This document shows, in pieces, positions 856-55,940 of a stretch of DNA of 64,000 nucleotides. Each line of letters begins with the position of its first letter. Within the stretch, counting starts at the first letter, position 1. The DNA is from Spirometra erinaceieuropaei. Its lineage: Eukaryota > Platyhelminthes > Cestoda > Diphyllobothriidea > Diphyllobothriidae. The DNA is taken from contig CACRXP010000002.1 in the NCBI GenBank assembly GCA_902702965.1, positions 1,640,512 through 1,704,511 of the forward strand, read 5' to 3'. Made by a program: the position numbers and the translations under genes. The notes beneath the pieces are model-generated. The model was not told the origin of the DNA. It made no database searches and saw nothing but the letters and a program-made list of their open reading frames with translations.

Positions 856-3483
856 TTGGACCTCTTGGATTCGAGTAGGAATCCGAAACGTCAGGCTAAT
901 AAAGCTCTTGTCCCGGTGATCGTGTCTCCTTCTTCAAGACTACTTCCTGGGACTCGGCTATTCGCTTCTATTGGCAATGTATTTGGGCGCGATGCGGTCC
1001 GATCGGCCCGGCGATGGGAAACTTTCGCCCTTCGGGAGGCCTCTACGTATTCGCAGATCCGGTTTCTGCACAGGTGTCTCGACAATAATGTGTTACCGAA
1101 ATGTGTTTCATACAAGCCACCGGTTAACACGGATTTGGCGAGACGAGCAGTATTTCAGCACGGCAGAAGGATGATCCGTGTGCTCCTCCAAGATTGCCAC
1201 GCGAGACTTCGTAAGTACCGTCAAAGGATTGACCAAGAAAAGACCAGATGCTGTGAGTTCATGGGTGAAATCGGCACGAATCTGCTCCGGCGGAGGATAG
1301 CTGAACAAGCCCGCGAACAGAGCACGATACGCAACGCAGCACTGGAGAACAAATTTCGAAAGCTGCCCAATCCAACGTCGCCCAGAAACGACAAACGGGT
1401 GCACAACCTGTCATCAAAGGAGCTGACGAAGGATCAGATGCAGGTTTTACGGCACGAAGCTTCATTTAACACGGCTGACGCCAAACCTGTTAACATGATT
1501 GCAGCAGTGGAATCAATCCTTTGTCAGACGGAGGCAACGGAGGAGACTAAGAACCTCATCCGACACCAAGTGTCGTCTCTCCTGATGGCCCACAGGCCGC
1601 GGGAAGTGCTTTCCAAGGTCGAACGTGATGCGCTTAGAGAACTCAAGGCCGACAAAGACCTGGTCATCGTGCCAGCGGACAAAGGACGCGCCACAGTTGT
1701 ACTGGACAGGACAGACTACCTTCAAAAAGCCAAAGGTTTACTGGAGGACCGACAGTTCTATGTCCCATGTGCAACGAACCCTTTAAAGGCGCTGACACGC
1801 GAAATTAATGCTACGTTGTTGGCCTTGGAGAACTCAGGTGCAATAACACCGACCGACAGACGCATGGCGAGACCCCAAGATACGGCTTTGGCCCGATTCT
1901 ATGGCCTCCCTAAGGTGCACAAAGACGGTGCTCCTCTCCGACCCATCGTGTCGCTCAAAGGGACTCCAACGTACGGACTGGCTAAGTGGCTGTTCTGGCG
2001 TCTCAATTTCCTGACCGCAGAGTCAGACACCACGGTCTCTTCGTCGGCACAATTCCTGGAGAAACTCAAAGGGGTAAGCATCCATCCAAATGAGGTCATG
2101 GTATCTTTTGATGTTACATCCCTTTTTAGTTCTATTCCTCAGGACCTGGCGATCGAGACAATTGAACTGCTACTACAAAGCAAATACGATGAAACGGAGA
2201 ACCGTCTTGGACACGCCCAAATCCTTCAGCTCCTGAAGCTCTGTCTCAGGACGTACTTCACGTTCGACGGGACAATCTACGAACAGGTGAAGGGAACACC
2301 AATGGGTTCGCCGATTTCGGGATTCATCGCCGAGGCGGTCCTGCAACGGTTAGAGTCGCTGGTCTTCCAACACCGAAGACCGAAATTCTGGGCCCGGTAT
2401 GTGGATGATACCTTCGTCGTCATCGAACGGGATCAGGTGTTGACATTCCAAGAACATCTCAACGCCGTCTTCCCGGACATTCAATTTACGATGGAGGAGG
2501 AAGAGAACAACCAGCTAGCCTTCCTGGATGTCCTCGTATGCCGCAAGGATTGTGGTGGACTAAAGACCAAAGTGTTCAGGAAAGCGACAAATACGATGCA
2601 AGTACTGAACTTCAACAGTAACCACCCAATCAGCCACAAACGCAGTTGTGTAAGGACGCTCTATCGGCGTGTCGAAACGCACCGCAGTGAGCCGGAAGAC
2701 AAAATTGCTGAACTACAATACCTCCGACGGGTCTTCAAAGCCAATGGCTACCCGCGCAACTTCGTCGACCGGTGCATACGCAAAAGGGACGAAAGGCCTA
2801 ACCGCACGGACACCAAATCTTGGCGGACACTTCCGTATGTCAAGAACGTTTCGGAAGCTGTCGGCCGCCTTCTCGCACCACTTGGGGTTGGGGTGGCACA
2901 CAGACCGGACGCAACCATCAGGCGTCTGATCATGAAACCGAAAGACCCACTGCCACGGCTAGAAACGTCTGGAGTCGTTTATCGGATCTGGTGCAGTTGC
3001 GGACAAAGCAACTACGTCGGAGAAACCGGAAGACAGCTCCGAACGAGAATGGCCGAACACGCGGCAGCGGTGCGCAGAAATGACGCCAGCTCTCAAGTTG
3101 TAGCTCATTCGACGAGATCCGGCCACACATTTAAATTCGATGAGGCCGAAATTCTCGCAAGAGGTGACAAACGCGTGAGCCGGGAGCTACTGGAATCATG
3201 GTTTACTGGCCCCCAGTCCATCAACAAGTGCAACGATCTTCCCATTCAATACAGCGTGCTGAGACTTCGTCTAGGCGGAGTAATTGGCCACGCGGGGAGC
3301 GCACTGGTGAACACTCTTCCCAACACCCGGGTCAACGCGTCAGATGGTCGAGCAATCATCACGCCAACATCCAACACACGTGATGAAATTGCAGCAATTA
3401 TCGACTCGAATGTCGGCCATCAAGCAATAATCACATCAAGTGTGACAATCCCGGATGAAGGGGGGAGCCGTGAACGTTCATAG
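856..3483 (+). CDS. Penelope-like retroelement protein: reverse transcriptase + GIY-YIG endonuclease (PLE-A1)
   Basis: One uninterrupted frame of 875 codons, the best-preserved gene here. Residue numbers count from the TTG at 856. ADKG block at about 274-277; RT motif around FYGLPKVHKDG (348-358) followed by RPIVS; motif A SFDVTSLF with Asp at 419; GTPMGSPISGF at 480-490; catalytic YVDD at 515-518; LDV block at about 558. After a linker comes a GIY-YIG nuclease: VVY at 707-709, YVG at 720-722, an Arg/Glu pair in RTRMAEH, and Cys713, Cys715, His751 and His757 as likely zinc ligands. PLE proteins copy element RNA at a nuclease-cut target. The frame is open into the 5' pseudo-LTR and junction; the first ATG is at 1171, yet PLE-like residues precede it, so the true start is uncertain. 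No internal stop, so possibly recently active. Confidence 0.9.
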   Translation: MDLLDSSRNPKRQANKALVPVIVSPSSRLLPGTRLFASIGNVFGRDAVRSARRWETFALREASTYSQIRFLHRCLDNNVLPKCVSYKPPVNTDLARRAVFQHGRRMIRVLLQDCHARLRKYRQRIDQEKTRCCEFMGEIGTNLLRRRIAEQAREQSTIRNAALENKFRKLPNPTSPRNDKRVHNLSSKELTKDQMQVLRHEASFNTADAKPVNMIAAVESILCQTEATEETKNLIRHQVSSLLMAHRPREVLSKVERDALRELKADKDLVIVPADKGRATVVLDRTDYLQKAKGLLEDRQFYVPCATNPLKALTREINATLLALENSGAITPTDRRMARPQDTALARFYGLPKVHKDGAPLRPIVSLKGTPTYGLAKWLFWRLNFLTAESDTTVSSSAQFLEKLKGVSIHPNEVMVSFDVTSLFSSIPQDLAIETIELLLQSKYDETENRLGHAQILQLLKLCLRTYFTFDGTIYEQVKGTPMGSPISGFIAEAVLQRLESLVFQHRRPKFWARYVDDTFVVIERDQVLTFQEHLNAVFPDIQFTMEEEENNQLAFLDVLVCRKDCGGLKTKVFRKATNTMQVLNFNSNHPISHKRSCVRTLYRRVETHRSEPEDKIAELQYLRRVFKANGYPRNFVDRCIRKRDERPNRTDTKSWRTLPYVKNVSEAVGRLLAPLGVGVAHRPDATIRRLIMKPKDPLPRLETSGVVYRIWCSCGQSNYVGETGRQLRTRMAEHAAAVRRNDASSQVVAHSTRSGHTFKFDEAEILARGDKRVSRELLESWFTGPQSINKCNDLPIQYSVLRLRLGGVIGHAGSALVNTLPNTRVNASDGRAIITPTSNTRDEIAAIIDSNVGHQAIITSSVTIPDEGGSRERS
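866..972 (+). repeat. 5' pseudo-LTR of PLE-A1
   Basis: A 107-bp direct repeat of 3571-3677, differing at 6 positions by eye (about 94% identity). PLEs are known to carry such pseudo-LTRs arising from tandem insertion. This copy starts exactly at the stem II position of the hammerhead-like motif seen whole in the 3' copy, so it lacks the CTGANGA-like core. It lies inside the open frame of PLE-A1. Confidence 0.85.
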
Positions 3484-3518: not shown

Positions 3519-3559
3519 CCGCAGCCCCTTGTGCAACAACCACCCGTTTCTGCTCTTTT

Positions 3560-3601
3560 GTCTTTGATGATGGATTTGAGTAGGAATCCGAAACGTCAGG
3601 C
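3560..3601 (+). ncRNA. Hammerhead-ribozyme-like motif in PLE-A1 3' pseudo-LTR
   Basis: Read against the hammerhead layout: stem I strand GTCT (3560-3563) can pair with AGGC (3598-3601) through three Watson-Crick pairs and one G-T. The core TTGATGA (3564-3570) differs from CTGANGA at C3. Stem II GGATT (3572-3576) pairs with AATCC (3585-3589). GAA (3590-3592) is followed by ACGT (3593-3596), giving a two-pair stem III without a loop, and the cleavage-position C is 3597. Deviations are C3 to T and an extra T before stem II, so this copy may be inactive. Hammerheads in PLE pseudo-LTRs are established knowledge. A self-complementary stem III would need a dimeric fold. Confidence 0.55.
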
Positions 3602-3677
3602 TAATAAAGCTCTTGTCCCGGCGATCGTGTCTCCTTCTTCAAGATTACTTCCTGTGACCCGGCTCTTCGCTTCTATT
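3571..3677 (+). repeat. 3' pseudo-LTR of PLE-A1
   Basis: Direct repeat partner of 866-972 (6 differences in 107 bp). It ends at 3677, where foldback element R1a begins without spacer. The hammerhead-like motif straddles its left edge. Confidence 0.85.
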
Positions 3678-4307: not shown

Positions 4308-4309
4308 TA

Positions 4310-5917: not shown

Positions 5918-6907
5918 CAGTAGATGTGCTAACTCATTAAAAGTCAACCAAAATTTCGAAATGCGTTCTCGTTTCGAAAAGATAAATTAAGTAGTGTTGT
6001 AAAACTAATCGTGATGCAGCATAAATCTATAATTATTCAGTTACCTCAGGGTGTCGGCTTTCGAAAGAACTTATTTTCGGCTGCATGCAAGATCTATACT
6101 CTGCAAAAATGTCTACTTAAGTAGCATGCAATTTTCTCATTGGTGTTCGATGCCTTTGAAAATTCAATTATATTTCATGGAAAACATGCTAAGATATTCA
6201 TTCTTTTATTTATTCTGTAGAAAATCACGTCTTCTTCCAATTTCATACTCGAAAGAAGAGTATAATTCGGTTTTAAAAGGTTTATAATTGTGAGATTTTT
6301 TAATACCGTCAAATGGCCGTTCATGAAACGTCATGTATCTGCATTTACGAATGTGGCTTGTAAAGTTAACAATATTGCTCAAATCCATTGCCTAATTTTA
6401 TGAACCTCATATGCTCTCCTCTTAACACCGTAGAGAAATTCATGCAATATTGTTTACTTTACAAGCCACATTCGTAAATGCAGATACATGACGTTTCATG
6501 AGCGACCATTTAACGGTATTAAAAAATCTCACAATTAGAAATTTTTTAAAACCGAATTATACTCTTCTTTCGAGTATAAAATTGGAAGAAAACGTGATTT
6601 TCTACAGAATAAGTAAAAGAATGAATATTTTTATGCACGTTTTCCATGAAGTATAATTGAATTTTCAAGGACATCGAAAGTCAATGAGAAAAGTGCACAC
6701 TACTTAAGTAGTCATTTTTTGCAGAGTATAGATCTTGAATGCAGCCGAAAATAAGTTCTTTCGAAAGCCGACACCCTGAGGTAACTGAATAATTATAGAT
6801 TTATGCTGCATCACGATTAGTTTTACAACACTACTTAATTTATCTTTTCGAAACGAGAACGCATTTCGAAATTTTGGTTGATATTTCATGAGTTAGCACA
6901 TCTACTG
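5918..6907. mobile_element. R1b: complete 990-bp foldback (long-TIR) element, TA target site
   Basis: Begins CAGTAGATGTGCTAACTC and ends with its reverse complement GAGTTAGCACATCTACTG, bounded by TA at 5916-5917 and 6908-6909. The two halves are inverted copies almost to the centre: about 470 bp per arm around a loop of about 60 bp near 6370-6440. The empty site survives in repeat X copy 2 (near 7135, reading GGAAATACTGC), supporting insertion at TA. TA duplication with CAGT...ACTG ends is typical of Tc1/mariner-type transposons, but there is no transposase frame, so it is non-autonomous. Confidence 0.8.
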
Positions 6908-7140
6908 TATATGCAGCATAGCTTGGATTTAGCGATACAAATGACCTGTGTAAGGGAGCGCACCACGTCTTCAGATAATTTCTCTGACGAATGAAATCCC
7001 ATATGAGTGTGCTGTGTAACTTTTTCATTGCCTGGACTTTCTGGAGAACTCCATAAATTGATATAGAAAGAGGGTATTTTTATAATGGCCTTCGGATATT
7101 TTTTAAGCATTTTTAAAAACAGCATATGGAAATACTGCAT
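6908..7140. repeat. Repeat X, copy 2 (right of R1b)
   Basis: Direct repeat of 5690-5917. Here the sequence runs through the R1b insertion point uninterrupted, so it preserves the empty site. Confidence 0.75.
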
Positions 7141-8510
7141 TGTTTGGTTCAAAAGGGTGAAATACCTACCTTCTGTTTTATGAATAGAGCACCGTTATGA
7201 AAATACTAAAATTTTCTGCATTGGGCAATGAATTTAAATTTTTGTCCAGTGAAAGAAAATGAATGCTGATAGCAGGAAGCCCACCATTTGTTGAGAAGGC
7301 AAAAACTGCTCAGGGTGTTCTTCAAGTGCGACTCTCGGGGCATGAATATTTGATAACCTTTATTGCGCAAAGCAAATAAGGCACGAAGGTCGCCAATTTG
7401 ACTTTTTGCCCTGACGTTTGCCAGTTTAATTTAATTGGGTAGCCGGAAACTTTAAAGGCCACCTCATCAAAAGATAGGACGCAGTTTCGTGACTTAGGCA
7501 TTAGTCTAAAAAGGAGTCGGTTTTAGCTGTGGTATTTTTTTTCCTGAAACCTGAATACTGCTGTTCATTGGGCCACCTTCGGTTGCGTGATGAAATGATA
7601 CCAAAGTTTTGTCTGGCGCAGACGTCAAAATACGTACGTCCTTTTGTTCGACAAAAATATCGGCTTTGCGTTCTAAAATGAGAATCCTTTTTGCATATTT
7701 TGGCAACGATATAGAGAAGGGCGCCAATTAACTGTCAGTAGACTGTGGATCGTGCAATACGTGATTTATGGTAAAGGGAGATTTAGGGGTGGGACAGCAG
7801 GCTAGACAGTAAGCTGACAAAATGAAAGAACACACAAGAATTGCCCGGATGTATACCGGAAGTCTTATCCTACGCTATTCTATGTCAAAGGAAATGAGAG
7901 TAGTAATTAGACAATTCACGAAAAGCAAATTTCACAAAATAACGGGTGTTGAGTTAAGGTGTGAGGTCGTGAGAAGTAATCGTTGTCGGCAGTGTAGTTT
8001 CTGCAACAGCCTGCAAAGGTATGTCAGGATAAAACCCCATATGCCACGATCCCCCCTCTATTGACAGTTAAGCTGGGTCCTCCTCTATACCGTTGCACAT
8101 CTTTTTAACAAACGGGTGCCCGGTGGATGCGTAATATAGTCTGAATATTGCCTGACGCAAAAGTCAAAATACGTACGTTGTTTTGTTCAACAAGAATATC
8201 GGCTTTGTCATCTAAAGTAGGAAATCTTTTCGTATCTTTTTAACAAACGGGTGCCTTATGGGTGCGTAATATAGTCATACAGTTAGTATTAGACATTCTG
8301 AAAAAAGTTCCAAATGTTAACTTTTACCATCTTCTAAAGTATCTTATGTGATGTAATCGACGGTTCTATTCAAGCCACCTTTGGAATTCGTGTATTATTG
8401 GCCAAGCTGGCGACATGAACATCCAAGCTACTCGCCTGAGAAGAAGGGTCCTGGCTTAATGCTCCCTGACCTTACATGACGTATTGGCAGTGATGACCTA
8501 TGTCTTGTTC
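7141..8510. other. Non-coding with short internal repeats
   Basis: TCAAAATACGTACGT followed by a TTTTGTTC.ACAA.AATATCGGCTTTG block occurs at about 7625 and again at about 8166. ATCTTTTTAACAAACGGGTGCC occurs at about 8099 and 8235. The pieces look like fragments of one decayed repeat. The open frame 7822-8064 (80 codons) has no recognisable features and is not called. Confidence 0.4.
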
Positions 8511-9165
8511 AGCTATAGAACCACACTGTCATCGGTGTGAGATTTTTGGCCCGATCCCCCAAACTAGACGTAAGTTTTGAGCGTATTTGCAGCCTTGCAT
8601 TAACATGGGTTCCAAATGCCAAAGAACGGGAGATTAGTAGATGAATGAAGGGGGCATTCATCCGCTTCAGAATTAAAGACAGCTTTATAGTCGTGTCTAA
8701 CAAAATATTAAATGCTTGGTTAACGCTTGTCACAACTACGTTTCCACTGTTTCGTGTCATGCGAGCACTGAAACGACACGCCTAAGCATGGAAACATGTC
8801 GTTTAAGTGATCCATTTATATATATGATATATAAATGTTTTGTTTGGCAATAGAACCACGCTGTCAGCGGAGTGAGATTTTTGGCCCGGACTCCGCAAAC
8901 GCGACGTAGGTTTTCGGCATATTTGTAGCCTTGCATTAACATGGGCTCCAATTGCAAAAGAAAGTGAATTTTAGCAAAATATATTTACAATATAATAAGC
9001 ACACTTCCCGTAAGATACGAGATCTCTAATGAGTTAATTACTTTATGCATGCTTTATTGGCGAGATTAGTAGACGGATAAGGGAGACGTCCATCTGCAAC
9101 TAAAGCAGACAGTTTTAAGTCGAGTCTAACAAAATATTAAAGGCTTGGCTAACGCCCGCATCTCA
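8511..9165. repeat. Tandem direct repeat R6 (two units)
   Basis: Unit 1 (8511-8740) and unit 2 (8843-9165) share ATAGAACCAC.CTGTCA, GTGAGATTTTTGGCCCG, GCCTTGCATTAACATGGG, GAGATTAGTAGA and TCTAACAAAATATTAAA. Unit 2 has about 95 bp of extra sequence near 8965-9060. Unclassified; no coding. Confidence 0.7.
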
Positions 9166-9204
9166 GTCATTAATGGCCAAAATGCCATCTTCCAACGTTG
9201 GTTA

Positions 9205-10290
9205 CAAATGGCAAAAGGGCCCGGACATTTTCCACACTACTTCAAGTATGCGTTATTTGCGTGATCACTTACAATGCGCACGAAAAGTCTCACCAATGGA
9301 TACTGTGGAAGGCAAGATAAGTGAGTCTGTTCGTGGGCTGCCCGCTCATAGAATCGAGGCACAAGCAGCTTGCGACAGACGCATTTGTCTTCTCTGGCAG
9401 GAATTTCGATTTCGCCTTTTCAGTATAATTACGGTGGAATTGCATAACGCCCAGATTTGCACGCACGATCGTTGCTATCTTTACCGAGAGGCAGACAAGG
9501 CGCGTGTCCACCGACCAAGAATGCATTTAAATCACAGTACTGTATCGAGCCGTATTCAGTGGATCGCCGTAATTAGTCTAAGGGACGCATTAACGAGAAA
9601 CGAACGGTCAAGCAGACGCACCTTACTGGTGTAGCCGAAAAGTTGCCTTAAGCGCTCTGTCTGACACAATTTTCCCAGCGGCAGTAGAGGGGATGCCGAA
9701 ATTGGTCAAACTTAGTGCTCGTCGTTGGCTCAAGCAGATAATTCGAAGAGTGGTCATGCAACAGAAGGGGGATTTGCCAACCAGAAATCGCAAGCAATTG
9801 CATATTTGAGAAGAAACTGCACAGAGATAAGAAACGGCCGGTAACATCTCAAAAAGAGGACTAAGAGATTGCATACTTGCTAGATTTTCTTGACTTTCAA
9901 ATGTTCTTAAAACAGGCAATGACACAGACTCTGAACCCCACACAATTCTCAGAGTTGTCATGCAACGGAAGGGCGATTTTCCAAACAGAAATCTCAAACA
10001 GCTGCCCATAACTGGGAAATTAGTCCCCATGTCTGGAAGAGGCGTGCACACGCTAACGAACAATCGTGAACGAGGGCAAACATTTAAATCTGGTAATGTT
10101 TGTTGTGCCAATTTATGTTTCTTCGTAAGTCCATGGAGCAGATGAAAGAGCTAGTACGCTGGGAGACGCAGGGAAAACCATCGTGCGCCCGTTCCAGTGC
10201 GTATGCAAGGCGGACTATTAAAAAAACACTGTTACGCTGTTCCGCTACACAAAAACGATAGCCACATCGCCATGGGACATAACTCGGGCA
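9205..10290 (+). repeat. Repeat R2, copy 1
   Basis: Left part 9205-9533 aligns with the reverse complement of 34129-34415. Part b (9548-10290) aligns with 10926-11490 (same strand) and the reverse complement of about 32640-33187. At the position where copies 2 and 3 carry an R1 element, this copy instead has CAGTACTGTA. The frame 9173-9634 (153 codons) runs across two repeat parts and is not conserved in the other copies, so it is not called. Class of R2 unknown. Confidence 0.7.
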
Positions 10291-10291
10291 T

Positions 10292-10923
10292 CCAATTTTA
10301 TACTCGAAAGAAGGGTATATTTAGGTTTTAAAAAGTTCCTAATTGTGAGTTTTTTAATACCGTGAAATACCTGCTCATAAAACGTCAAGTGTCTGCATTT
10401 ACCAATGTGACTTGTGAAGTTAAAAATATGGCTCAAAACCACTGCTAAAATTTATGCACCACATATGGTTTGCTCTTAATGCCGTAGAATAATGAATGAT
10501 TTTCCGTACGCAGAAAATATACGCAGGTCGATTTCAAAATTATTTGGGAATTTGAAAAGTTTTTGAAAATCGAATTATACCCCTTTTTGAGTATAAAATT
10601 GAAAGAAGACGACATCTTCTATTGAATGAATAAAATAATGAATGTTTATGCATGCCTTCTACAAAGTATAATGAAATATTTAAGGGTATCGAAAATCAGT
10701 GGGAAAAATACATGCTACTTAAGAATTCATTTTTTATAAAGTATACTTCTTGTATGCAGCAAAAAAAGAAAATCGTTCGAAAATCGGCATCCCGCGGTAG
10801 CTGAATAATTATCAAATTATGCTGCAAGATGATCAGTTTTACAACCCTACCTAATTAATCTTTTCGAAAAGAAAACGCATTTCGGAATTTCGGTTGACAT
10901 TTCATGAGTTAGCCCACCTACTG
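10292..10923. mobile_element. R1c foldback element, left-truncated
   Basis: Matches R1e (33190-34126). The right terminus CACCTACTG ends at 10923 and TA follows at 10924-10925. The left ~300 bp is missing; the cut coincides with the end of R2 copy 1 at 10290. Confidence 0.75.
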
Positions 10924-10925
10924 TA

Positions 10926-12370
10926 CCGAGCCATGTTCAGTGGATCGCCCTATTTTGTCTGAGAGATGCATTAACGAGATACAGACGAACAGGCAGACGT
11001 ACTCAACTTGTGTGTCGTCGAGCTACTCTTTTTTGCGCTCAATCTGGCGCAATTTGTCAAGCTGAATGCTCGGCGCCGGCTCAGGCAAAGGATTCGAAGT
11101 GTGGTCATGCAACGGAAGGGTGATGTGCCAACCAGAAATCGCAAGCAATTGCCCATAACTGGTAAACTAGGTCACTTATCTGAAAAAAAACAGAAAGAAG
11201 AAACCACCGGGAGCCTCGCAAAATAGCGGACTAAGAGATTGCATATTTGCTAGGTTTTCCCGACTTTCAACTGTTTTCAAAACAGACAGTGACCCAGATT
11301 AAGAATTCCTCAAGAATTTTAGGCGGGATCCGAGCAGAGGAGAGAGCTAGTGCGTTGGGCGACGCAGAAAAAACCATCATGAGCCCGTTCCAGTGCGTAT
11401 GCAAGACAGGTCATTCAAAAGCACTGCTCTGCTGTTCTGCTACACCAGAACGATAGCCAAATCGTCATAGGTCATACCTCGGGCCGTACTCTGCCTGTCT
11501 TATCTGTGCGTGTGGCACGAGGCACGGACAAGTCACTGAGAAAATGAGGCTGATAATGCGGTTCCCTTCCTCAGCCACTGTGACAATTTGACTCATTTCC
11601 CACTTAAATAGATCTGACTCGTCTACACTTATGAAGAATGTGCGCGATATCTGAGCGGCAGTTAGGCTGGAATGACCTTCATGGTTCATTCCACTCTTGT
11701 GAAATCTACGCCCGTCGGTAGACAGCGACTTCACAACAAGTCAGCCACTGCACCCGACCCAACACCCTGCAGTCGGCTTCATTCGGATTGGCTGCTGGTG
11801 TACGGCAGAGGGATGAAAGTCTGCTGTCTATCTAGCTCGATGTCAGTGCCTACCTCCTCCCAATTAATTATCCAACACGCCTCAGGCTATCGCGAGACGC
11901 CAAGAGTCGTAGTCTTCAGTGTGACAGCTCTGATGACGCAAACCGATCTCACTCTCTGCTCAGAGTTGGGCTGCAGTGCCATCTGTTCACTGGGATTAGT
12001 ATGACATTTCTGGCCGGTTAGAAAGATGAAGATTCCCTTCTAAAAAACGGATTATATTCACTTAGGTAGCAGTTCGTATTTAACAAGCTTAGAGGGGCGA
12101 CCTTGTCAGCCACCGCACACACACACACACCCGCCCACCTCCAGCCGTCTTGACTTTGCTCTACCGGAGGAATAGAATCCGTCTGGGAGGGCAGACTGGG
12201 GTGGATGTAGCGCAGACGTGCTTCGCTGTAAATAAATTTAAGCACAGATCACGGTTGTGCCATCTCCGGAGACGGTGGCGGTCATTTTCGCTTTTGGCTA
12301 GCTCTCACGCATGCAAATTACTATTACACAGTGGGTGGTAGGCTGTCCTGAAGGACTCATCGATGTCAGA
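10926..12370 (+). repeat. Repeat R2, copy 2
   Basis: Aligns over about 1.4 kb with the reverse complement of 31737-33187, starting CCGAGCC.TGTTCAGTGGATC right after R1c and ending near CCTGAAGGACTCATCGATG. It contains a (CA)n tract at 12116-12130. No recognisable protein domain in any frame; the frame 11672-12004 is not maintained in the inverted copy. Confidence 0.75.
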
Positions 12371-12735
12371 TCCAGCGTTTGCATTGTAGCGTTAATCACT
12401 GAGAGTGTTTAGGTGGGAGATTTAAGAATGGATTTAAATCGCTCTGACTGTCTTATGCGGAAATGGTACATTTTGGCTGTGTTGTAATTATTGCAAGTAT
12501 GCAATCATACTTTGTTTCGAGAGTATGCCCTGTGTCGCCTCAGCCCTCAAAAGTTGCACATGGTGGACGTCCTTGCTTGAGATGGCTGAAGTGTCGTCGA
12601 TTCAGAGGGGCGGTAATCGAACCACTTGCTTTTTGCAAGAGAACTTTGCCGCTTATTCGATATCGTGCTTATTCATAACTAGCATCCAAAAACTATGCCT
12701 TTCAAAATCGTTTCTGTAGACGTGTAAGTATGACT
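12371..12735. other. Non-coding, nothing recognised
   Basis: No domain, RNA gene or second copy in the window was recognised. Confidence 0.4.
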
Positions 12736-12738
12736 GTC

Positions 12739-12862
12739 AGAGGTAAATTCTATGAACTGAATGGGAAAAAGAACCTTTTTTGGTAAAAGAATCGGCTCTT
12801 TGAAATGACCAATGAAAGGAAAAAGTAGAAGACGTAAATTGGCCATTGATTTCCTGCAAATA
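12739..12862. repeat. Direct repeat R9, copy 1 (left of RTE)
   Basis: Shares TTTTGGTAAAAGAA, GGCTCTTTGAAATGA, ACGTAAATTGGCCATTGATTT and CTGCAAA with 14773-14896, same orientation. The RTE fragment and R1d lie between the copies. Confidence 0.75.
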
Positions 12863-12887
12863 TATTTTATAAAAAACATCAACAACC

Positions 12888-14064
12888 GACGGCCGTCTGC
12901 TGCATTGACTATGCCGCCGCGTTCCATTCCGTTCACCGTGAGTCCCTGTGGCAGATAATGGCGCTAGATGGTGTGCCGGCAAAAATCATCGCAATGATAA
13001 AGGCCTACTATCGCTCCACTACTGCGAGAGTCCTGGTCCGCAACAATCTTTCCCAACCGTTCGGTATTCGGTCCTGCGTCCGACAGGGTTGTATCCTGTC
13101 ACCCATACTGTTCAACTACGCTATTGACTGGATCCTCGGGAGGGCCCCACGCGAGAGTGACGGCGTTGAGTTTTCCCCCGGACATCGACTGACTGATCTC
13201 GACTATGCCGATGATATCGCCTTAGTTGCTTCAAGTTTTGGTGATCTGCAGTCTATGGTGTCACGCGTGAACGAGGTCGCTAAATCTGTCGGTTTGTCCA
13301 TAAACGCTGGGAAGACCAAAGTGTTCTCAAGCTGCATCCCTGACCAGGAGATGGCACCCCTCGGGATTGATGGCTGTCAACTTGAAGAAATAGATAGTTT
13401 TAAGTACCTCGGGGCGAGGCTGCTGCATAATGGACAGAGTAAGGACGACATTGTCTCCTGAATCGAGGCTGCCCGCTGGGTTTTCTCAAGTTTTCGGAAA
13501 TGTCTATGGAACCGAGGTGACCTCTCCGTCGCCACTAAGATTCGCGTGTACCGTGCATCCGTCCGGTCTGTCCTTCACTACGGTCGTGAATGCTGGGCTT
13601 TGCGCGTGGAAGACGAGTGAAAACTGGAGGTATTTGACCACCACTGCCTGAGGACCATCCTTCGAGTGAAGTTCACCGACTTCGTCTCAAATGAGACAGT
13701 CCGCGCTCTCTGCGACAACATCGCAAGTAGAACTCAGGCCATCCAAGAAAGACGACTGTTGTGGTTCGGGCATGCTCTTCGTCGGCCACCTCAGGAGCTC
13801 AGTGTTACTGCCCTCGATCCGGCCCCGTTGCCCCATTGGAGGTGTCGACGAGGGGGTCAGTTCAAAACCTGGCTGGACACAGTTCGTCAAGACATGGAGG
13901 TGGTTCTTGGACCTGCGGTATTCGGTCTCCGTCGTAGGCGAAGGGAATGGGTTGAGCTGTCCAGATCTGCTGCTGCGGATCGTCGCGTGGAGAGGTACAG
14001 TTCGGGGCATCATCGAGGCCGGCTAGATCAGGCATGATCGCAGCCGTATCAAGTACAAGTATGA
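12888..14064 (+). pseudogene. RTE-like non-LTR retrotransposon, RT C-terminal part, decayed
   Basis: One frame reads the RT palm and the C-terminal region of a LINE. Motif A reads CIDYAAAFHSV, keeping the catalytic Asp but with His where LINEs usually have FDSV. Next come VRQGCILSPILFNYAIDW, then YADDIALVA with YADD intact, then GLSINAGKTK, then the C-terminal ERRLLWFGHALRR block. Two in-frame TGA stops (13459-13461 and 13618-13620) sit where an Arg is expected, and a frameshift near 13985 moves the end (VAWRGTVRGIIEAG) to another frame. The 5' end, including endonuclease, is absent. The short 3' end and C-terminus favour the RTE clade over CR1; clade assignment is moderately sure. Such elements copy themselves by target-primed reverse transcription. 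Confidence 0.85.
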
Positions 14065-14772
14065 AAAAAATATGCTTTCATTCACTCGTTTGACAGAGAA
14101 CTACGTCATCTTTATATTTTGTGCTCGAAAAAGGAGTATAATAAGGTTTTAAAAGCTTTCTAATTGCCGAATAATTTGGAGCCGGATTAGCCTTTGCATT
14201 AGCGCTTAGTGATTTCAGTCTGCAAGATGCATGCGTCCCGCGTAAAGAAAATCATATATTCTTTTATGCCGTTGAAAGATATAGAGAGTCCGCAAAATTT
14301 TGCAATGGATGCGGACTATGTTGTACATTTCATGAGGAGCAGTAGTAGACGGTGTGGTACGATCCTGTATGAATGGACATTGCACGGTCTTAATAAATCT
14401 CATAATAAGAAACTTTTTTAAACTTTATTATGCTCCTTCTTCGAGCATAAAATACAAAGAGGGCGTAATTCTCTGTCAAACGAGTGAATGGAAGCATATT
14501 TTTTCATGTTCTCTATAAAACACATTTGAATTTGTAAGACCATCGAAAATCAATATGAAAAATGCATGCTACAAAAGTAGTCATCTCTTTTTAAGTACGG
14601 TTTTCACAGGAGATTGAAAAGAAGTGTATTCAAAAACAGACATCCTGTCGAGTCCGAAATACTTTAGGACTATACCGCAAGATAATATATATTAGAACAC
14701 CACCTAAGTAATTCTTCCTAATCGAAAACTCATTTCATTTCATTTTGGTCAACATTTCGTGAGATCGGTCAC
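14065..14772. mobile_element. R1d foldback element, both ends damaged
   Basis: Matches R1f from the ATATGCTTTC block through the central region to GAGATCGGTCACTCA. The left ~270 bp is missing where the RTE ends, and the last few bases of the right end (CTG-TA) are gone. Confidence 0.7.
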
Positions 14773-14896
14773 TCAAAGAAAAATTCTATAAACAGAATCG
14801 GAAGAAGAGCCTTCTTTTGGTAAAAGAAACAGCTCTTTGAAATGATCAAGAGAAGGGGAATGTAGAAAACGTAAATTGGCCATTGATTTTCTGCAA
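14773..14896. repeat. Direct repeat R9, copy 2
   Basis: Partner of 12739-12862; follows the damaged end of R1d. Confidence 0.75.
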
Positions 14897-33187: not shown

Positions 33188-33189
33188 TA

Positions 33190-34126
33190 CAGTAGGTGAG
33201 CTAACTCATGAAATGTCAGCCGAAATTCCGAAATGCGTTTCCTTTTCGAAAAGCTTAATTAGGTAGGGTTGTAAAACTGATCATCTTGAAGCACAATTTG
33301 ATAATTGTTTAGCTACCGCGGGACGCCGGCATTCGAACGGTTTTCTTTTCTGCTCCACACAAAAGTATACTTTGCAAAAAATGAATTCTTAAGTAGCATG
33401 CATTTTTCCCACTGATTTTCGATACCCTTAAATATTCCATTTATTTCGTAGAAGGCATGCATAAACATTCATTCTTTTACTCATTCAATAAAAAATGTCG
33501 TCTGCTTTCAATTTTATACTCAAAAAGGATGCAATTCGATTTTCAAAACTTTTCCAATTGCCGAATAATTTTGAAATCGACCTAGGTATATTTTCTGAAT
33601 AGGGAAAATCATTCATTATTCTACGGCGTTAAGAGAAAACTATTTGTGGTTCATAAATTTTAGCAGTGGTTTTGAGCCATATTTTTAACTTTTCAAGCCA
33701 CACTGGTAAGTGCAGACACATGACGGCCATTTCACGGTATTAAAAAACTCACAATTAGAAACGTTTCAAAACCGAAATATACCCATCTTGCGAGTATAAA
33801 ATTGGAAGAATACGTCATTTTTTACCGGATTAGCAAAAGAGTGGATATCTTTATCCATGTTTTCCGCGAAATATAATGGAATTTTTAAGGGTATCGAAAT
33901 TCAGTGGAAAAATACATGCTACTTATGAATTCATTTTTTACAAAGTATACTTTTTGTGCCTAGCAGAAAAGAAAATCGTTCGAAAGCCGGCATCCCGCGG
34001 TAGCTGAATAGTAATCAAATTACGCTGCAAGATGATCAGTTTTACAACCCTACCTAATAAATCTTTTCGAAACGAAAACGCATTTCTGAATTTCGGTTGA
34101 CATTTAATGAGTTAGCCCACCTACTG
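33190..34126. mobile_element. R1e: complete 937-bp foldback element inserted in R2
   Basis: Starts CAGTAGGTGAGCTAACTC and ends GAGTTAGCCCACCTACTG, with TA on each side (33188-33189, 34127-34128). Arms are inverted copies of each other over several hundred bp. R2 sequence continues on both flanks, so insertion into R2 is directly visible. No transposase frame. Confidence 0.85.
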
Positions 34127-34128
34127 TA

Positions 34129-35084: not shown

Positions 35085-35415
35085 GGAGGTAGGGTAGATT
35101 TTGGGGTTTGGGTTAGCGTCAAGCTGAGAATTGAGTTAAGGGTTAGGATTTGTGTTAAGTCTAAGTGTTCCGGTTAGAGTTAGGGTTTGGGTTGCGGTTT
35201 AGGTTTGCCTTTTGTGTTAAGGTTGGTGTTACGGTTAGTGTGGGGTTACGGTTAAGGTAGGGGTTATGGTTTAGATTAGGGCTAGGGTTTGGGCTGGGGT
35301 ATGTGGTAGGTTTAGGGTTGGGTTTAGGACTAAGCTTAGTGTTAGCGTTCGGCTTATAATTACGTTAAGGATTAGGTTTACTTTTGAGGTTACGATTTGG
35401 TTTGGGGTATTGCGG
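35085..35415. repeat. Degenerate TTAGGG-like array
   Basis: About 330 bp of G/T-rich plus strand made of variants of GGTTAGGG/GGGTTTGGG (for example AGTTAGGGTTTGGGTT, GATTAGGGCTAGGG, GGTTTAGGGTTGGG). The flatworm telomere repeat is TTAGGG, so this may be an old interstitial telomere-like tract or a degenerate minisatellite. Confidence 0.65.
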
Positions 35416-36819
35416 TCCGCGTGTCCTCTCAGGAGGCTCTTTTAAGAGGATTTTAGGCTTTCTTGAATCTCGCAGGAGATTTTTGTACATCAGGTTGTCT
35501 TTTCCGTTTCAGTCTCGACTACTTTCCCCACTAACGACTTCAGCATCCCCCGTCAGCTTCCTTTATTTTCAATGGCCACATGGCTCTTACACTTGGGACC
35601 AGGACAGCGAAATTGACCGTTGCCCACAATAGTACCTGCCAATCCGATGAATGCTCAACCTAATTGTGCTCCGGCGATCTGTGGGATCGGGGAGCGGCGA
35701 CTGACTGCCATCCTCTGCTTCGCGTGAGTGTGCTTGATAATAAGGAGGACACTCATCCTTGAGGACTCATCACATCTGTGCTCTGATCGTAGACGAGAAG
35801 ATAATTACCTTCTTAGCTTTCCGTAACCGCAGTCCAGTTGTTGTCAAACGATCTGGAGCGGGTGGATGGAACGTGTGTCTGGAAGATTCAAGAACAACCA
35901 GATATTCAAAAACTGCTTCCCGAAATTCCATATAGCAGAAATTATCATGAAGATGATGCCATTTTATGTTTTGCTCATTTAGTTACATCTGACAAATAGC
36001 AGGATGTATATGGGCCATCTCACTTGTAGTTTACAAATTGTATAGCACTTCAACGTGTTGGCTGTGCTGATTGAAGATCTAAACAGTCTGGCTACGTGTT
36101 TTCTATACTTAAAATTACTTTGCCTTAAATGGCTGGTCGGAAACAGACATGTGGACTCTCTGAAATTTGCTGCAAGGCCATTTGCAATAGGAGAATGGAT
36201 ATCAATAGAGACCTGTCAAAGGAGAAAATATGGTGTCCTTGAATACAAAAAGTGAAAATATCCTATTTGTGCAGCATATTTGTTACGATACGTTAAAAGA
36301 CACTTTAGAAAAAAATGGTTTATGAGGACACTCGTATCCGTGCGCTACCAAACGAAGACTAATGTTTAATTAGGAGTTGATTTTGCATTTTGAAGACATT
36401 TCTTATTCCTATAAAACGCTCTGAGGTGTCGTCAGTTTTTCATGTTGAATGTGAGCCCCTGGCGAAGGAAGTCTGGAAGCCATTAGTCTGCGACAAAAGC
36501 TTTTCGTCAAAGAAAAACCGCTTGACTTTCTCGTCCAACAAGCCTACTTAGTAGATGGAACAAACAACGCCTAATTTGCCAAGTTTGCTTCTGGAACACC
36601 TTAGTACTTTTGCGCAAAGATAAGCAGAAACTTGAGGTCTTGTCATCATGACGTTTTTCGTGCGTGTGTGTCCCGCGTGTTGTCAAGGCGACTCACCTAT
36701 TTGGTCTGTAACCAGCCGCGTCAATGCACAATTAGCACTGGCAGAAGATTTTAGGAATTAAGGCGAAATTTCGAGTTCCAGGTTTATGCATAAGTGAAGA
36801 AGAGTCGAGCACCGGAACA
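35416..36819. other. Non-coding, nothing recognised
   Basis: Short frames only, no repeat partner seen in the window. Confidence 0.4.
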
Positions 36820-36972
36820 CCAAAATAGTCGCCCACGGCGGAAACAAAGCAGGCCGAGAATTTATTGAAGCCTGGGCGTAGGATGAGAACTCGGTCGATC
36901 GATTTATCGATCTGGCGCCGGCGTACAGAGCCCTTCGTAGTCACCTCCAGTCGTGCGATGTCGGTCGATGAT
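36820..36972 (+). pseudogene. PLE-D remnant: end of GIY-YIG nuclease
   Basis: The plus strand reads KIVAHGGNKAGREFIEAWA, a TAG stop, then DENSVDRFIDLAPAYRALRS before a TGA. This lines up with the end of the PLE-A nuclease (EILARGDKRVSRELLESW ... SINKCNDLP). Everything upstream is missing or unrecognisable. It is followed at the expected distance by the best-preserved hammerhead core in the window. Confidence 0.7.
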
Positions 36973-37018
36973 TGGGCCAACGTGTCTCATAACTGTCGTT
37001 TGTCCTGTTTCTGCCACT

Positions 37019-37060
37019 ACCTCTGACGATGGACCCCTGTACGAGTATGAAAGCTCAGGA
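37019..37060 (+). ncRNA. Hammerhead-ribozyme-like motif in PLE-D tail
   Basis: Stem I CCT (37020-37022) pairs with AGG (37057-37059). The core CTGACGA (37023-37029) fits CTGANGA exactly. GAA at 37049-37051 is followed by AGCT (37052-37055), a two-pair stem III, and C37056 at the cleavage position. The stem II segment is 19 nt, the same length as in PLE-A1, but pairs poorly here. Stem III is A-T/G-C where PLE-A1 has A-T/C-G, a change that keeps pairing. Confidence 0.55.
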
Positions 37061-37455
37061 TAATAAACAAAGTGTTCCAGTGCTCGACGATTTTAGGAAT
37101 GCTTTCCGCCTGAAGTCCTGCATTTGGTCGTACATGAGCCAAAGAAATTGGACAGGGCAGGAAGCATACTTTGAAAAAATTCTTATTACTCGTATTTGTG
37201 GACAATGTAAAGGACCTCTCGACATTTATCGGTGGCGACAACGAGCATGATGATGATGATAAAGAGGAGGAGGAGGATAGGTAGGACAGGGGAAGGATAG
37301 ACAGCGGAAATATGACCGCATAATCCGGGTCAGAGCGCCAGTTATGTGAATCATCAATGAAGACGAAATGAACGACCAATTCATCCGGATGGCTTTCAGT
37401 TAAATCAAATTTTACGAAAAGTTGTGGCCACTATGAACTGAAAATCTACATCCTC

Positions 37456-47339: not shown

Positions 47340-47671
47340 TTCCCATATTTTCAATTTCTATCTAACCGCATTAGCCTGATAATGAGTTGCCGAAAACGCG
47401 TGTTTGCCAAATTGACTTTTCAAGAAATAGAGAACTTTCATTGCTAACCTTTTCGACTTGAAGTAGGCAGAAGTGACAAAACATGCGTAGTTTAATAACG
47501 CGAAATTTTATAACATTTTTTCACATGCGAATGCTCATAGAATTTTTGCATAACTAACCGCTCAATAAGAAAACAATCTCGAAAAGTGAAGCCAGACAGA
47601 TTTATAAACGGAAGGTAATGTTAAACAGGATTGTGAGCGAGTTTGGATCAGGGAGGAACTGTGCTGATTTA

Positions 47672-48663
47672 CAGTGAGTGACCGATCTCATGAAATGTTG
47701 ACTGAAATTCTGAACGGCGTTTTCGATTAGGAAGAATTACGCAGGCGCGGTTGTAATACTGATTATCTTGCCGCATAATCTTATAACATTTCGGATTCAG
47801 CAAGATGTGAGGTTTTGAAGACACTGCTTTTCAATCTCCTGCGGAGAACGTACTCGGTAAAAAATGACTAATTAAGTAGCATGCATTTTTCCCTGTTGAT
47901 TTCGGATGGTCTTGCAAATTCAAATATGTCTCATAGAAACCATAAAAAATATGCTTTCTTTTTGTCAATTATTAGAGTATCACGTCTTATTTATATTTTA
48001 TACTCAAAGAAGAAGTATAATTAGGTTTAAAAGAAGTTTTCTAATTGCCGAATAATTTGGAGCTTGATCATTCGTTGCATTAGCGCTTAGTGATTTGAGT
48101 CCACAAGGTACATGCGTTCTACGTAGAGAAAATCACATATTTTTTATGCCATTAAAAAGATATTATACAGAGTCCATAAAATTTTGCAATGCATGCGGAC
48201 TATGTTGTACATTTCATGAGAAGCAGTGGTAAATGGACAGGCATGATGCTATGTGAACGGAATTTGCGCGGTCTTAAAAAATCTCATAATTAGAAACTTT
48301 TCAAGACCTAACTATACCCCTTCTTCGAGCATATAATATAAAGAAGACGTGGTTTTCTGTTAATTGACATAAAGGAAGCATATTTTCGTTTATGGTTTCT
48401 ATAAGATACATTTGAATTTGCAAGACCATCCGAAATCAACAGGGAAAAATACATGTTATTTAAGTTGTCATTTTTTAGCGGTTACGTTTTCCACAGGAGA
48501 TTGAAAAGCAGTGTCTTCAAAAGCTCACATCCTGCCGAGTCCGAAATGTTATAAGATAATGCGGCAAGATAATCAGTATTACAACCGCACCCACGCAATC
48601 CTTCCTAATCGAAAACGCCATTTAGAATTTCAGCCAACATTTCATGAGGCCGGTCACTCACTG
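47672..48663. mobile_element. R1f: complete 992-bp foldback element, TA target site
   Basis: Starts CAGTGAGTGACCG and ends CGGTCACTCACTG, with TA on both sides (47670-47671, 48664-48665). The arms are inverted copies for about 385 bp (for example CGGTTGTAATACTGATTATC on the left and its complement on the right). The central ~220 bp is unpaired. Ends and target site are of Tc1/mariner type; no transposase frame. It is the best reference copy for the GTGAGTGACC subfamily. Confidence 0.85.
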
Positions 48664-48961
48664 TACGTGAACGGATTTTAACTACAACAGAAACAGGTCA
48701 GATTGGATTGAAGCTTTATATGAGATTGCATGAGGTCGCAGGTGATAAACTGCTACCAAACAGGCTAGTCGCTCCATGATACCAGTCCTGACGGTAAAGA
48801 CAACTCCAGCGCCTCGACGTTCTGCCTTTGAAAGATCCCTCCAGAAGAAGCTACAGTCTACATCCACCTGTCCTTGTTCAGAAGCTCAGATCTCACAGAG
48901 AGCGGTAATATCCATGCTGTATCACGACAGTTCCCGGGTAACCAGAACTTGCTTTCTTTTA
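48664..48961. other. Spacer between R1f and R1g
   Basis: The open frame 48776-48970 (64 codons) has no recognisable feature. Confidence 0.4.
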
Positions 48962-49662
48962 CAAGTTTAGTAAAACATCACATCTTCCTTACATTTTATA
49001 CCCTAAGAAAGTGTATATTAAAGTTTTGAAATAGTTTATAATTATGAGGTTTTTAAGACCCTGTGATGTACATACACACAGCATCGCACATGCACGTTTA
49101 CCAATTCTCCTCATTAAATGTACAACATGGTCCGCATCCATTGCAAAGCTTTATTAACTCTATGTGGAATATCCTTGAAGGCATAGAGAAATATATGGTT
49201 TTCCTTACGTGGAAAGTATGCACCTTGCAGACTGAAATCGGTGAGTGCTTGTACAACGGCCAATCTGGCTCAAAATTCTTCGAGAATCTGAAAACCTTTT
49301 CAAAACCTAAATATACACTTTCTTTGGGTATAAAATTTAAAGAAAATATGATTTTCTATCAGACAAGTAGAAGAAAGCATATTTTTTAAGCATGCTTTCT
49401 ATAAAATATATTAGAGTTTTTAAAACTATCGAACATCAATAGGAAGAATGCATGCTACTTAAATAGCCATTTTTTACTTAGTGTACTTTCTACAGGAGGT
49501 CGAAAAGAAGTGCATTCAATAGCCGATATCCTGGCGAGTCCGAAATACTATAGGATCCTGTCGCATTCTAATCAGTATTAAAACCCAACCTAGGTAATCT
49601 TTCCTAATCGAAAACGCATTTCAGAATTTCGGCCAACATTCCGTGCGATCGGTCAGGCGCTG
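48962..49662. mobile_element. R1g foldback element, left-truncated
   Basis: Aligns with R1f from the TCACATCTTC block to the right end, which reads CGATCGGTCAGGCGCTG and is followed by TA at 49663-49664. The left arm's first ~300 bp is missing. Confidence 0.7.
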
Positions 49663-50475
49663 TATGGCTGTCTGATTATTTCAGACATAAGTCAAATTCA
49701 ACTATCTGCCACGACTTTGTTTAGTTTGAAGACGGCTCGGGCAACATGTAAGATCACTGGTAAGCACTCCGTAGAACTTTTGTGTTGGAGGAGCGGGGGA
49801 AGGGAAGATTTAATAGGAAAGGTGACTACTGGGTGTGGAGACACACACGCCGGATACCGTCATGTAGCTAAGTTTGCCGGTCAAAATTGTTGCCGAGGCA
49901 CCGCCAGACAACGGCGAGGTTAGGTTCTGCAGCCCCACCTGGGCAATATTGCAAGGTTAGCTTTCCAAAAAATTTAGTGACTGCAAGTGTGCCGACTTTA
50001 ACATATCGCATGTTCGCATTTTCCCTACAATTTTAATTCAGCGACTGACTGTATCACGTGGGATGAGTGCTTATAAGCCAGCGTCGGCTGCTTCACACGC
50101 GCTTCCCTGCGCGCGCTTCAAGCCCTGCTTGCGCACTCATTACTATCCTAATCCAGCGAGTGGCCAGGTAGACTTGCTAATGAAATTGTTCGGACGGTAT
50201 GGAACTCCGTCGGTTCCCCAAAGTGGCCATACGGTGAGAATTACCACGCGGTTCCCTCTGTGCCCCTCCAGATGTGGTTGCGCCCTCCTTATCCTCTCAA
50301 TCCAGTAAGTAGCTGTGTAGGGAGGGGGGAGGCGAGTGTGTATACGTCACCTTCACTCGCTTCCCTGCGCGTGCTTAAAGCTCTACTGGCACTCTCCTCT
50401 CCTTCCTAATCCAGCGAGTGACTAAGTTAGGTATGTTAACTAATATTGCTTTAGTAAGCCAGCCATATGGTGCCT
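49663..50475. other. Non-coding, nothing recognised
   Basis: Contains two similar stretches (50080-50170 and 50350-50430: CGCTTCCCTGCGCG, ATCCAGCGAGTG), a weak tandem duplication of about 260 bp spacing. Confidence 0.45.
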
Positions 50476-52829: not shown

Positions 52830-53455
52830 GGCGTTCTTTGAGAAAAGGTACTTTATTGCGTGAATTTTCGACGCCGGTTCCCCGGGTAGTCGTCAGACGG
52901 AGACCGAAAGTAAATGTGCCGAAAACAGTTAACATCTGGCAGTGCACATGAAAAAATCGATAATCGCTCGCGTTCGCGCCCGTGAGCGGCCGCTATTTGC
53001 GTCAATCCGTCCCGATTGGCTCTCGTCTCTTCCATTTCTCCTTGAGACTTTTGTACGCGCGTCCAACTCGATGTGACGGTTGATGCACGATTCATCCGAG
53101 TGCATGGCCTCAAGGAACTCTCGGCCTTTCTTGAAGGGGCAGGCACCGACAATCCGTGTTCTGTCCCAAGCAAACGTATGCCCGGTGTCCAAGCTATGCA
53201 TGGCTACTTGAAACAGGTGGTCTCGCCTCTTTACTGCAAGTTGGTGTTCGTGAATGCGTGTAGAAGCGGATTTTCCTGTTTGACCACAATAAACTGCATC
53301 ACAGGCCTCACATGGGATCTTGTAGACGACTTTCTTTCTATCCAAATAGTCGACCCTATCCTTAGGGTGTACTATCTGAGTACGTAGTGTAGTCGTCAGT
53401 CTGTGTGCCACCCGAATCTGGTGTCTCTTTAGGTGCCTTTCCACAAGTTCAGACA
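52830..53455 (-). pseudogene. PLE-C1: GIY-YIG endonuclease domain and 3' end
   Basis: A clean minus-strand frame to 52929 carries VVYKIPCEACDAVYCGQTGK, STRIHEHQLAVKRRDH and AMHSLDTGHTFAW, ending with REFLEAMHSDESCINRHIEL and a C-terminal tail. The GIY position is VVY and YIG is YCG. Cys62, Cys65, His100 and His106 (counted from the ATG at 53495) are the likely zinc ligands. The first ~15 codons are AT-rich sequence bordering R1h, so the element is cut there and the RT is missing. 52830-52928 is its 3' region and reads CTGACGAC...GTCGAAAA, a relic of the motif seen at 62036. The nuclease itself looks intact, though unlikely to be expressed. Confidence 0.85.
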
Positions 53456-55796: not shown

Positions 55797-55940
55797 CGGG
55801 GCCTCGTAGCTCAAGTGATTAGAGCGTTGGCTGTACTAAAGCCTTCTCCTTACTGCGTGGGTTCGAATCCCACCGAGGCGCCGAGTTTTTCACAGTTGCG
55901 TCAATATGAATTATTCAAAATCTGCCAAAATACCTAAGAA
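55797..55940 (+). mobile_element. tRNA-derived SINE (SINE-2), complete head
   Basis: The head folds as a tRNA: acceptor GGCCTCG against CGAGGCG with one mismatch at the end, D stem GCTC/GAGC, anticodon arm GGCT-GTACTAA-AGCC, T arm GTGGG-TTCGAAT-CCCAC with a consensus B box. The body resembles tRNA-Thr, but the anticodon loop is altered (reads ACT). The shared tail makes it a SINE rather than a tRNA gene. Confidence 0.65.

What the first reader, a model, noticed from the sequence alone, without database searches (positions are those of the whole stretch)
37019..37060. Hammerhead-like motif in PLE-D, with stem III pairing kept but changed relative to PLE-A1
Seen: CTGACGA core, CCT/AGG stem I, GAA, self-complementary AGCT stem III, C at the cleavage position. 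PLE-A1 has the same layout with ACGT, and both have 19 nt between core and GAA. A-T/C-G versus A-T/G-C keeps pairing, a compensatory-type difference that argues for a selected RNA fold. Known: PLEs can carry hammerheads in pseudo-LTRs. Inferred: this tail once cleaved, probably as a dimer because stem III has no loop.
Basis: partly seen in the sequence, partly recalled or inferred. Interest (0 to 1): 0.75.

Follow-up and report, generated by a model that had tools for sequence, protein, structure and literature searches.

The report
Decayed hammerhead ribozyme in retrotransposon tail
This spot in a tapeworm genome is a worn-out copy of a small self-cutting RNA motif that sits at the start of a common jumping gene; the kind is already known, but thousands of related copies here show that its RNA shape has been kept while its letters changed.

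Summary
The motif is real and lies where stated. It is a minimal hammerhead in the 3' tail of a 5'-truncated Penelope-like element (PLE) of a diphyllobothriid tapeworm (Spirometra/Sparganum), a kind already published. No Rfam model matches it, but a model built from other PLE families does: 26.9 bits, E about 2e-5; best hit outside PLE tails 8.9 bits.

A pattern that leaves stem II and the stem III dinucleotide free matches 13,684 places in the genome against 16 for the reversed control. Covariation is strong: 90.3% of cells paired against 75.5% shuffled, 71 double-changed cells against 23. The A1/D difference (ACGT/AGCT) is a family difference, and a third family type has AATT. The dimer reading fits; dimeric cleavage of such motifs is published (title seen only).

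Side finding: insertions are often head-to-head pairs with outward hammerhead tails, one long and one short in 16 of 17 callable pairs. The case is ordinary in kind; the genome makes PLE mechanism testable.

The parts
36818..37088 (+). PLE-D: 5'-truncated Penelope-like insertion, end of the GIY-YIG endonuclease ORF plus 3' tail
   Evidence: the other full-length matches listed cover query 19/20 to 288/289 only (40 of 2,834 candidates scored)
36813..36947 (+). remnant of the endonuclease C-terminal coding region
   Evidence: tblastn to PLE-B, 42% identity, E 2.5e-7
37020..37022 (+). stem I 5' strand CCT, pairs with 37057-37059
   Evidence: sequence; stem I cells 89.5% paired in 50 copies
37023..37029 (+). 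hammerhead core CTGACGA (C3-A9)
   Evidence: sequence; R1 model hit 37015-37066
37029..37031 (+). ATG overlapping A9: start codon of the PLE ORF
   Evidence: annotated proteins P0002-P0005 begin MMDSSRNPKRQANK, as the A1-type motif encodes; frame read by hand for D
37031..37048 (+). stem II 37031-37036 / 37043-37048 with loop 37037-37042; 4 of 6 pairs left in this copy
   Evidence: family stem II 6 of 6, window copy 4 of 6; two private changes, at 37035 and 37047
37049..37051 (+). GAA (G12-A14)
   Evidence: sequence
37052..37055 (+). AGCT: self-complementary stem III without loop (positions 15.1 to 16.1)
   Evidence: stem III cells 95% paired in 50 copies; middle pair CG 30, GC 14
37056..37056 (+). 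C17; predicted cleavage between 37056 and 37057
   Evidence: position by homology to hammerheads; not assayed
37057..37059 (+). stem I 3' strand AGG
   Evidence: sequence
3556..3607 (+). PLE-A1 3' tail hammerhead (stem III ACGT; C3 is T)
   Evidence: 65.7 bits, E 7e-17
858..902 (+). PLE-A1 partial 5' copy of the motif; the 7-nt core is absent
   Evidence: 46.4 bits
24880..24931 (+). PLE-B tail hammerhead-like motif (core CCGAAGA, GCGT)
   Evidence: 21.8 bits, E 6.6e-4; 6 of 6 stem II pairs
52859..52896 (-). PLE-F tail hammerhead (CTGACGA, AATT, no ATG)
   Evidence: listed as G000:C2:1693370 in the F-type search; not found by model R1

Best explanation
The motif is a minimal PLE-type hammerhead (published as a minimal variant of type I) at the ORF start and in the 3' tail of an endonuclease-bearing PLE. 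Stem I is 3-4 bp, U10.1 comes from the overlapping AUG, stem II is 6 bp with a 6-nt loop, and stem III is a four-base palindrome without a loop. Inferred working: two copies of the motif, in one tandem transcript or in two RNAs, pair through the palindrome into a double hammerhead, and each is cut between C17 and the stem I 3' strand, 25 nt after the AUG. The cut would release or trim PLE RNA units. The window copy is a decayed, 5'-truncated insertion with stem II broken at two pairs, so it is probably inactive or nearly so. Shown here: the motif, its place, genome-wide recurrence, covariation, decay. Inferred: cleavage, dimerisation, purpose.
For: Model without D rows finds D, A1 and B. 13,684 matches against 16 control; F type 2,212 against 11. 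99 of the 100 listed matches have the 19-nt spacing although five spacings were allowed. In 50 distinct rows 8 of 12 pairs show changes on both sides; sliding the partners drops pairing from 90% to 11-46%. Self-complementary middle pair: 86 of 99 and 90 of 100 in the F type. D family stem II 6 of 6, window copy 4 of 6; energy of stems I and II -9.0 against +2.2 kcal/mol. Layout matches the Anolis element PAc, whose ORF begins at stem II and whose cut site is 26 bp after the start codon (passages of PMC11167929).
Against: No Rfam hammerhead hit at E up to 10. The lone D copy folds no better than shuffles (z 0.59), and the family's lowest-energy fold is another one (-11.5 against -9.0). Core letters were fixed by my patterns, so their conservation there is by construction. 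CG, GC and AT are few events. Among A/T-only middles, self-complementary ones are hardly favoured: 27 of 45 rows left after dropping 55 rows of an unrelated repeat. Two of three phage-like sequences found by the same letters score 19.2 and 15.3 bits with model R1, not far below B. In 8 of 12 pairs with double changes, 28 of 500 shuffles did as well. Junctions at the cut site are only weakly in excess.
Confidence: 0.85

Rival explanations
1. The stretch is conserved only because it encodes the N-terminus of the PLE protein (M....K-R/A-Q.NK); the hammerhead look is a by-product.
For: A9-T-G is the start codon and AAA-NNT-CAG encodes K-R/A-Q; annotated proteins begin there.
Against: Stem II differs between families with amino-acid changes but keeps pairing. 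CG to GC changes R to A. The F type has no ATG at A9, yet has the same layout in 2,212 matches, with AT in the middle of stem III in 89 of the 100 listed.
Confidence: 0.06
2. The fold is kept as a protein-binding or template-recognition hairpin for reverse transcription, not as a ribozyme; U10.1 may pair with G12 and extend stem II.
For: RNAalifold extends stem II by the U-G pair (both letters were fixed by the patterns in most rows). In PAc, cleavage-dead mutants still insert in vitro, and the hammerhead shows no cleavage without protein (passages).
Against: PAc does cleave with protein, and the single mutants at C3 and G8 lose it. A stem II hairpin does not explain the self-complementary stem III or the stem I pairs.
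Confidence: 0.2
3. Chance resemblance in a decayed tail.
For: Loose hammerhead patterns occur by chance in the window: 11 matches against 6.3 expected.
Confidence: 0.01

Closest known systems
Minimal hammerheads of Penelope-like elements (Cervera and de la Pena 2014; Lunse, Weinberg and Breaker 2017; neither held; known here from reference lists and passages of reviews)
   Same: place in the PLE pseudo-LTR, minimal size, helix III missing, possible cleavage as dimers
   Different: this copy has lost two stem II pairs; no cleavage test; in two paper searches I saw no report of hammerheads in Spirometra (10 of 224 papers listed, none holding the word; 4 papers, listing)
PAc (Poseidon, Anolis carolinensis) hammerhead, PMC11167929 (passages)
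   Same: ORF starts at stem II, cut site 26 bp after the start codon (25 nt after the AUG here), insertion ends inside the ORF start
   Different: other host and sequence; PAc cleavage was shown, and only with the PLE protein
Penelope elements of Adineta vaga, PMC3846280 (passages)
   Same: head-to-head inverted pseudo-LTRs, tail extension on one of them, short target duplications
   Different: few copies there; I did not search that paper for hammerheads
Rfam hammerhead families
   Same: core CUGANGA..GAA..UH and three stems (recalled)
   Different: no match at gathering score or E up to 10

Membership tests
canonical type I hammerhead ribozyme (features recalled) | core CUGANGA, GAA, U16.1-H17 | tested here: met
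   37023-37056
canonical type I hammerhead ribozyme (features recalled) | stem I with open ends | tested here: met
   3 bp in D; pair 3 of stem I varies UG/AU/UA/CG in 50 copies
canonical type I hammerhead ribozyme (features recalled) | stem II | tested here: inconclusive
   D family 6 pairs; window copy 4 of 6 with two mismatches
canonical type I hammerhead ribozyme (features recalled) | stem III closed by a loop | tested here: not met
   AGCT without loop: not filed as canonical type I
canonical type I hammerhead ribozyme (features recalled) | Rfam covariance model score | tested here: not met
   no hammerhead hit at E up to 10
canonical type I hammerhead ribozyme (features recalled) | self-cleavage 3' of H17 | not testable with these tools
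   needs an RNA assay
PLE minimal (dimeric) hammerhead | lies in the tail or pseudo-LTR of a PLE | tested here: met
   endonuclease remnant directly upstream; family boundaries
PLE minimal (dimeric) hammerhead | helix III reduced, self-complementary across families | tested here: met
   86 of 99, 90 of 100; 95% of stem III cells paired in 50 copies; not favoured among A/T-only middles
PLE minimal (dimeric) hammerhead | homology to other PLE hammerheads | tested here: met
   R1 model without D-type rows, 26.9 bits; other PLEs of the same genome only
PLE minimal (dimeric) hammerhead | cleavage as dimer | not testable with these tools
   needs an RNA assay

The most novel reading that the evidence does not exclude
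The palindromic stem III of the PLE hammerhead serves mainly to hold two template RNAs together in a dimeric RNP, cutting being secondary. That RNP cuts both target strands and starts one cDNA on each, from two different start sites, giving the head-to-head insertions with one long and one short hammerhead tail seen here.
Probability: 0.1. Interest if true: 0.8.

Novelty: new member of a known kind. Interest (0 to 1): 0.42.

Why it matters
What the hammerheads of PLEs are for is unsolved: a 2020 review says their in vivo activity and role are still a mystery (passage), and in PAc the ribozyme is dispensable for insertion in vitro (passage). This genome holds 15,896 strict motif matches to two patterns (a small share is an unrelated repeat), enough natural variation to test which parts of the fold are kept, and many insertions whose ends record where reverse transcription began. 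It can help to separate two-sided target-primed insertion from self-priming, and ribozyme from hairpin.

Tried and rejected
Rfam gave no hammerhead; the weak snoRNA and microRNA hits are below gathering score and treated as chance. IMG/VR pattern scan: 3 hits, of which I read 160-200 bases each and which I take for chance in phage-like contigs; a scan of that collection with the A1 protein found no relative, and model R1 scores two of the three at 19.2 and 15.3 bits, as sequences picked by the same letters would. Single-strand folding is uninformative. A/T-only stem III middles showed little preference: 27 of 45 self-complementary (one-sided p 0.12) after 55 of 100 listed rows, an unrelated 35-nt repeat, were dropped. 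The arm-length numbers are unusable for 5 of its 9 pairs, because the aligner took the palindrome as one match, and are not used. One control pattern was mis-specified by me and is not used as a control.

Test of in vivo cleavage by junctions: A1-type copies that begin exactly at the predicted cut site, 16 places, of which 15 are true junctions after reading the upstream DNA by eye (one is a point deletion, L169; L183 and L184 share their flank). Other offsets: 4 nt upstream 6, all true; before GAA 7, of which 3 true; 1 nt upstream 10, upstream DNA not read, 3 look like deletions; 1 nt downstream 7 with a stricter downstream word, 6 true (9 of the 15 at the cut site carry that word); 4 nt downstream 5, not read. 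The excess is about twofold and not sharp: undecided.

Full report
Source. The window lies in a 759-Mb, 1,932-contig assembly. The PLE-A1 protein matches proteins of Sparganum proliferum and Spirometra erinaceieuropaei, best hit 91% identity over 97% of its length; the 120 hits listed of 429 are from these two. So the host is a diphyllobothriid tapeworm. In these two genomes Penelope elements make up about 10% of the assembly (PMC8166898, passages with Table 2).

The observation. The window holds PLE pieces in many places. PLE-D is only a tail: the other full-length matches listed cover window 36818-37088 or one or two bases less (40 of 2,834 candidates scored). A search of 13 tails for the best hammerhead-like arrangement (the anchor of one, 22909 -, was set from a motif already seen) gave scores of 15 or more in A1, D, F (52896 -) and 22909 -; 1.1% of 1,500 random 350-nt pieces of the window reach 15. 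B, C and one further F tail reach 14 (5.8% of random pieces). The other six tails scored 9 to 13, no better than background. A strict descriptor hits twice in the window (0.1 expected), both in PLE tails.

Stem II. Of 14 distinct D-family rows that cover the motif, 11 have all six pairs of stem II, and 12 have the core CTGACGA; the window copy differs from the family at 16 of 271 positions, two of them inside the motif and both in stem II (a 15th row lacks the region). Energy of stems I and II is -9.0 kcal/mol for the family and +2.2 for the window copy. So the copy drifted after insertion.

Genome-wide recurrence. The pattern CTGANGATG-N15..19-GAANNNTHAG has 13,684 matches, the reversed control 16. 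Of the first 100 listed, 99 have the 19-nt spacing; their middle dinucleotides are CG 73, GC 13, others 13. Stem II pairing in 71 distinct rows is 93.7% against 86.2% when whole 3' strands are dealt out anew, highest of 2,000 deals 89.2%. Families differ by matched changes in stem II: GGATTC/GAATCC, GGAAAC/GTTTCC, GGACTC/GAGTCT, GAACTC/GAGTTC. The A/T-only form of the pattern has 252 matches; 55 of the 100 listed are an unrelated repeat, so a small share of the 13,684 is not PLE. A pattern for the F type, which has no ATG at A9, has 2,212 matches against 11; 89 of 100 listed have AT in the middle of stem III and 1 has GC.

Covariation. 50 distinct copies were aligned: 31 from the window, the loci and D loci; 19 more, 18 and 1, chosen for varied stem II. 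Cells paired 90.3% (shuffled 75.5%, 0 of 500 reach it), double-changed cells 71 (23.2, 0 of 500), covariation score 0.420 (0.178, 0 of 500), pairs with changes on both sides 8 of 12 (6.3; 28 of 500 shuffles reach it). Slid partners pair in 11-46% of cells. Related copies inflate shuffle tests, and 19 rows were picked for variety, so the slid control and the pair types matter more than the zeroes. Stem I alone was weaker in an earlier 45-row set (51 of 2,000 deals reached the observed value); that set held rows selected for A/T middles.

Covariance model. R1, built from 28 rows without D-type or window rows, finds in the window: A1 tail 65.7 bits, A1 5' copy 46.4, D 26.9 (E 2.1e-5), B 21.8 (E 6.6e-4), then nothing above 8.9 bits. 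It does not find the F-type tails. On three phage-like loci picked by the same letters it gives up to 19.2 bits.

Overlap with coding. A9-T-G reads as the PLE start codon in A1, B and D (frames by hand). Of 120 fetched proteins 7 carry K.Q.N near the start, and P0002-P0005 begin MMDSSRNPKRQANK, which is what the A1-type motif encodes. The stem III dinucleotide is the first two bases of a codon NNT, so CG or GC gives R or A. PAc has the same overlap (passages). In the F type the overlap is absent, so the motif does not depend on it.

Working. Inferred from homology: with no loop, stem III can form only between two motifs; self-complementary CG, GC and AT in different family types fit that. Reviews state that PLE hammerheads are minimal, lack helix III and may cleave as dimers (passages), and a 2017 title reports dimer cleavage (reference list; paper not held). 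In PAc cleavage needs the PLE protein and is not needed for insertion in vitro.

Head-to-head insertions. Among the 82 listed motifs on contig C1, 12 of 15 neighbours within 5 kb face away from each other (0 of 20,000 strand shuffles). In the F-type list 15 of 20 pairs within 2 kb do so, and 13 of these 15 differ by at most one base, against 4.9% of random pairs. I fetched 33 divergent pairs, picked by closeness from the lists, not all of them. The two outward tails end at places differing by 20 nt or more in 26 of 33; of the other seven, at least five end in TA or TTC repeats on one side or both. In two family types where tails fall into two length classes (thresholds set after seeing the lengths) 16 of 17 pairs have one long and one short tail, none two long, one two short. 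Words of 8 or more shared by the outer flanks occur in 14 of 33 pairs against 2.3% of 1,056 mismatched combinations; of 11 or more, 7 of 33 against 0.2%. Head-to-head pseudo-LTRs, a tail on one of them and short duplications are described in Adineta vaga and were read there as self-priming on an antisense template (PMC3846280, passages); PAc cuts and extends both strands and starts at two adjacent sites (PMC11167929, passages). The pattern here fits one start per strand. PAc, however, showed no difference in start site between the strands.

Verdict. A real, decayed member of a published kind of ribozyme. The value lies in the size of the natural data set and in the insertion pattern.

Noticed in passing
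G000, 33 pairs, e.g. L117, L118, L119; window 54-853 (-) facing PLE-A1: PLE insertions are often head-to-head with outward hammerhead tails, one long and one short (16 of 17 callable pairs), with short target duplications in many.
   Followed up: yes
L170-L184: 15 junctions where an A1-type copy starts exactly at the predicted hammerhead cut site, about 13 of them (by eye) joined to an inverted PLE arm; in L171 both arms start there. Excess over other offsets about twofold, not sharp.
   Followed up: partly
D-family tails, e.g. L012-L029: Many tails end in a (TTC)n run of varying length that is the poly-serine codon tract of the ORF, suggesting that reverse transcription starts at a microsatellite.
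   Followed up: no
L009, L023, L026, L028, L029; variants in L008, L030: Several D tails continue into the same 3' sequence (TATGTATACACCTGGAACTCGAAATTTCGC); by hand it reads TPGTRNF, like LPGTRLF in A1, so it is probably the long form of the tail.
   Followed up: no
L066-L089 (16 of the 30 loci): An unrelated dispersed repeat carries CTGACGATGGCAAGCAGCCTCTACAGAAAATTAAG, a hammerhead look-alike without an evident stem II.
   Followed up: no
window 35184-35300: Tandem array of period 18, GGTTGGGGTTACGGTTTA, faintly telomere-like.
   Followed up: no
window 3671-14778, 33188-34128, 47668-49664: Families of inverted and direct repeats forming foldback-like units.
   Followed up: no
window 55800-55881: tRNA-like match of 35.4 bits, possibly a SINE head.
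   Followed up: no
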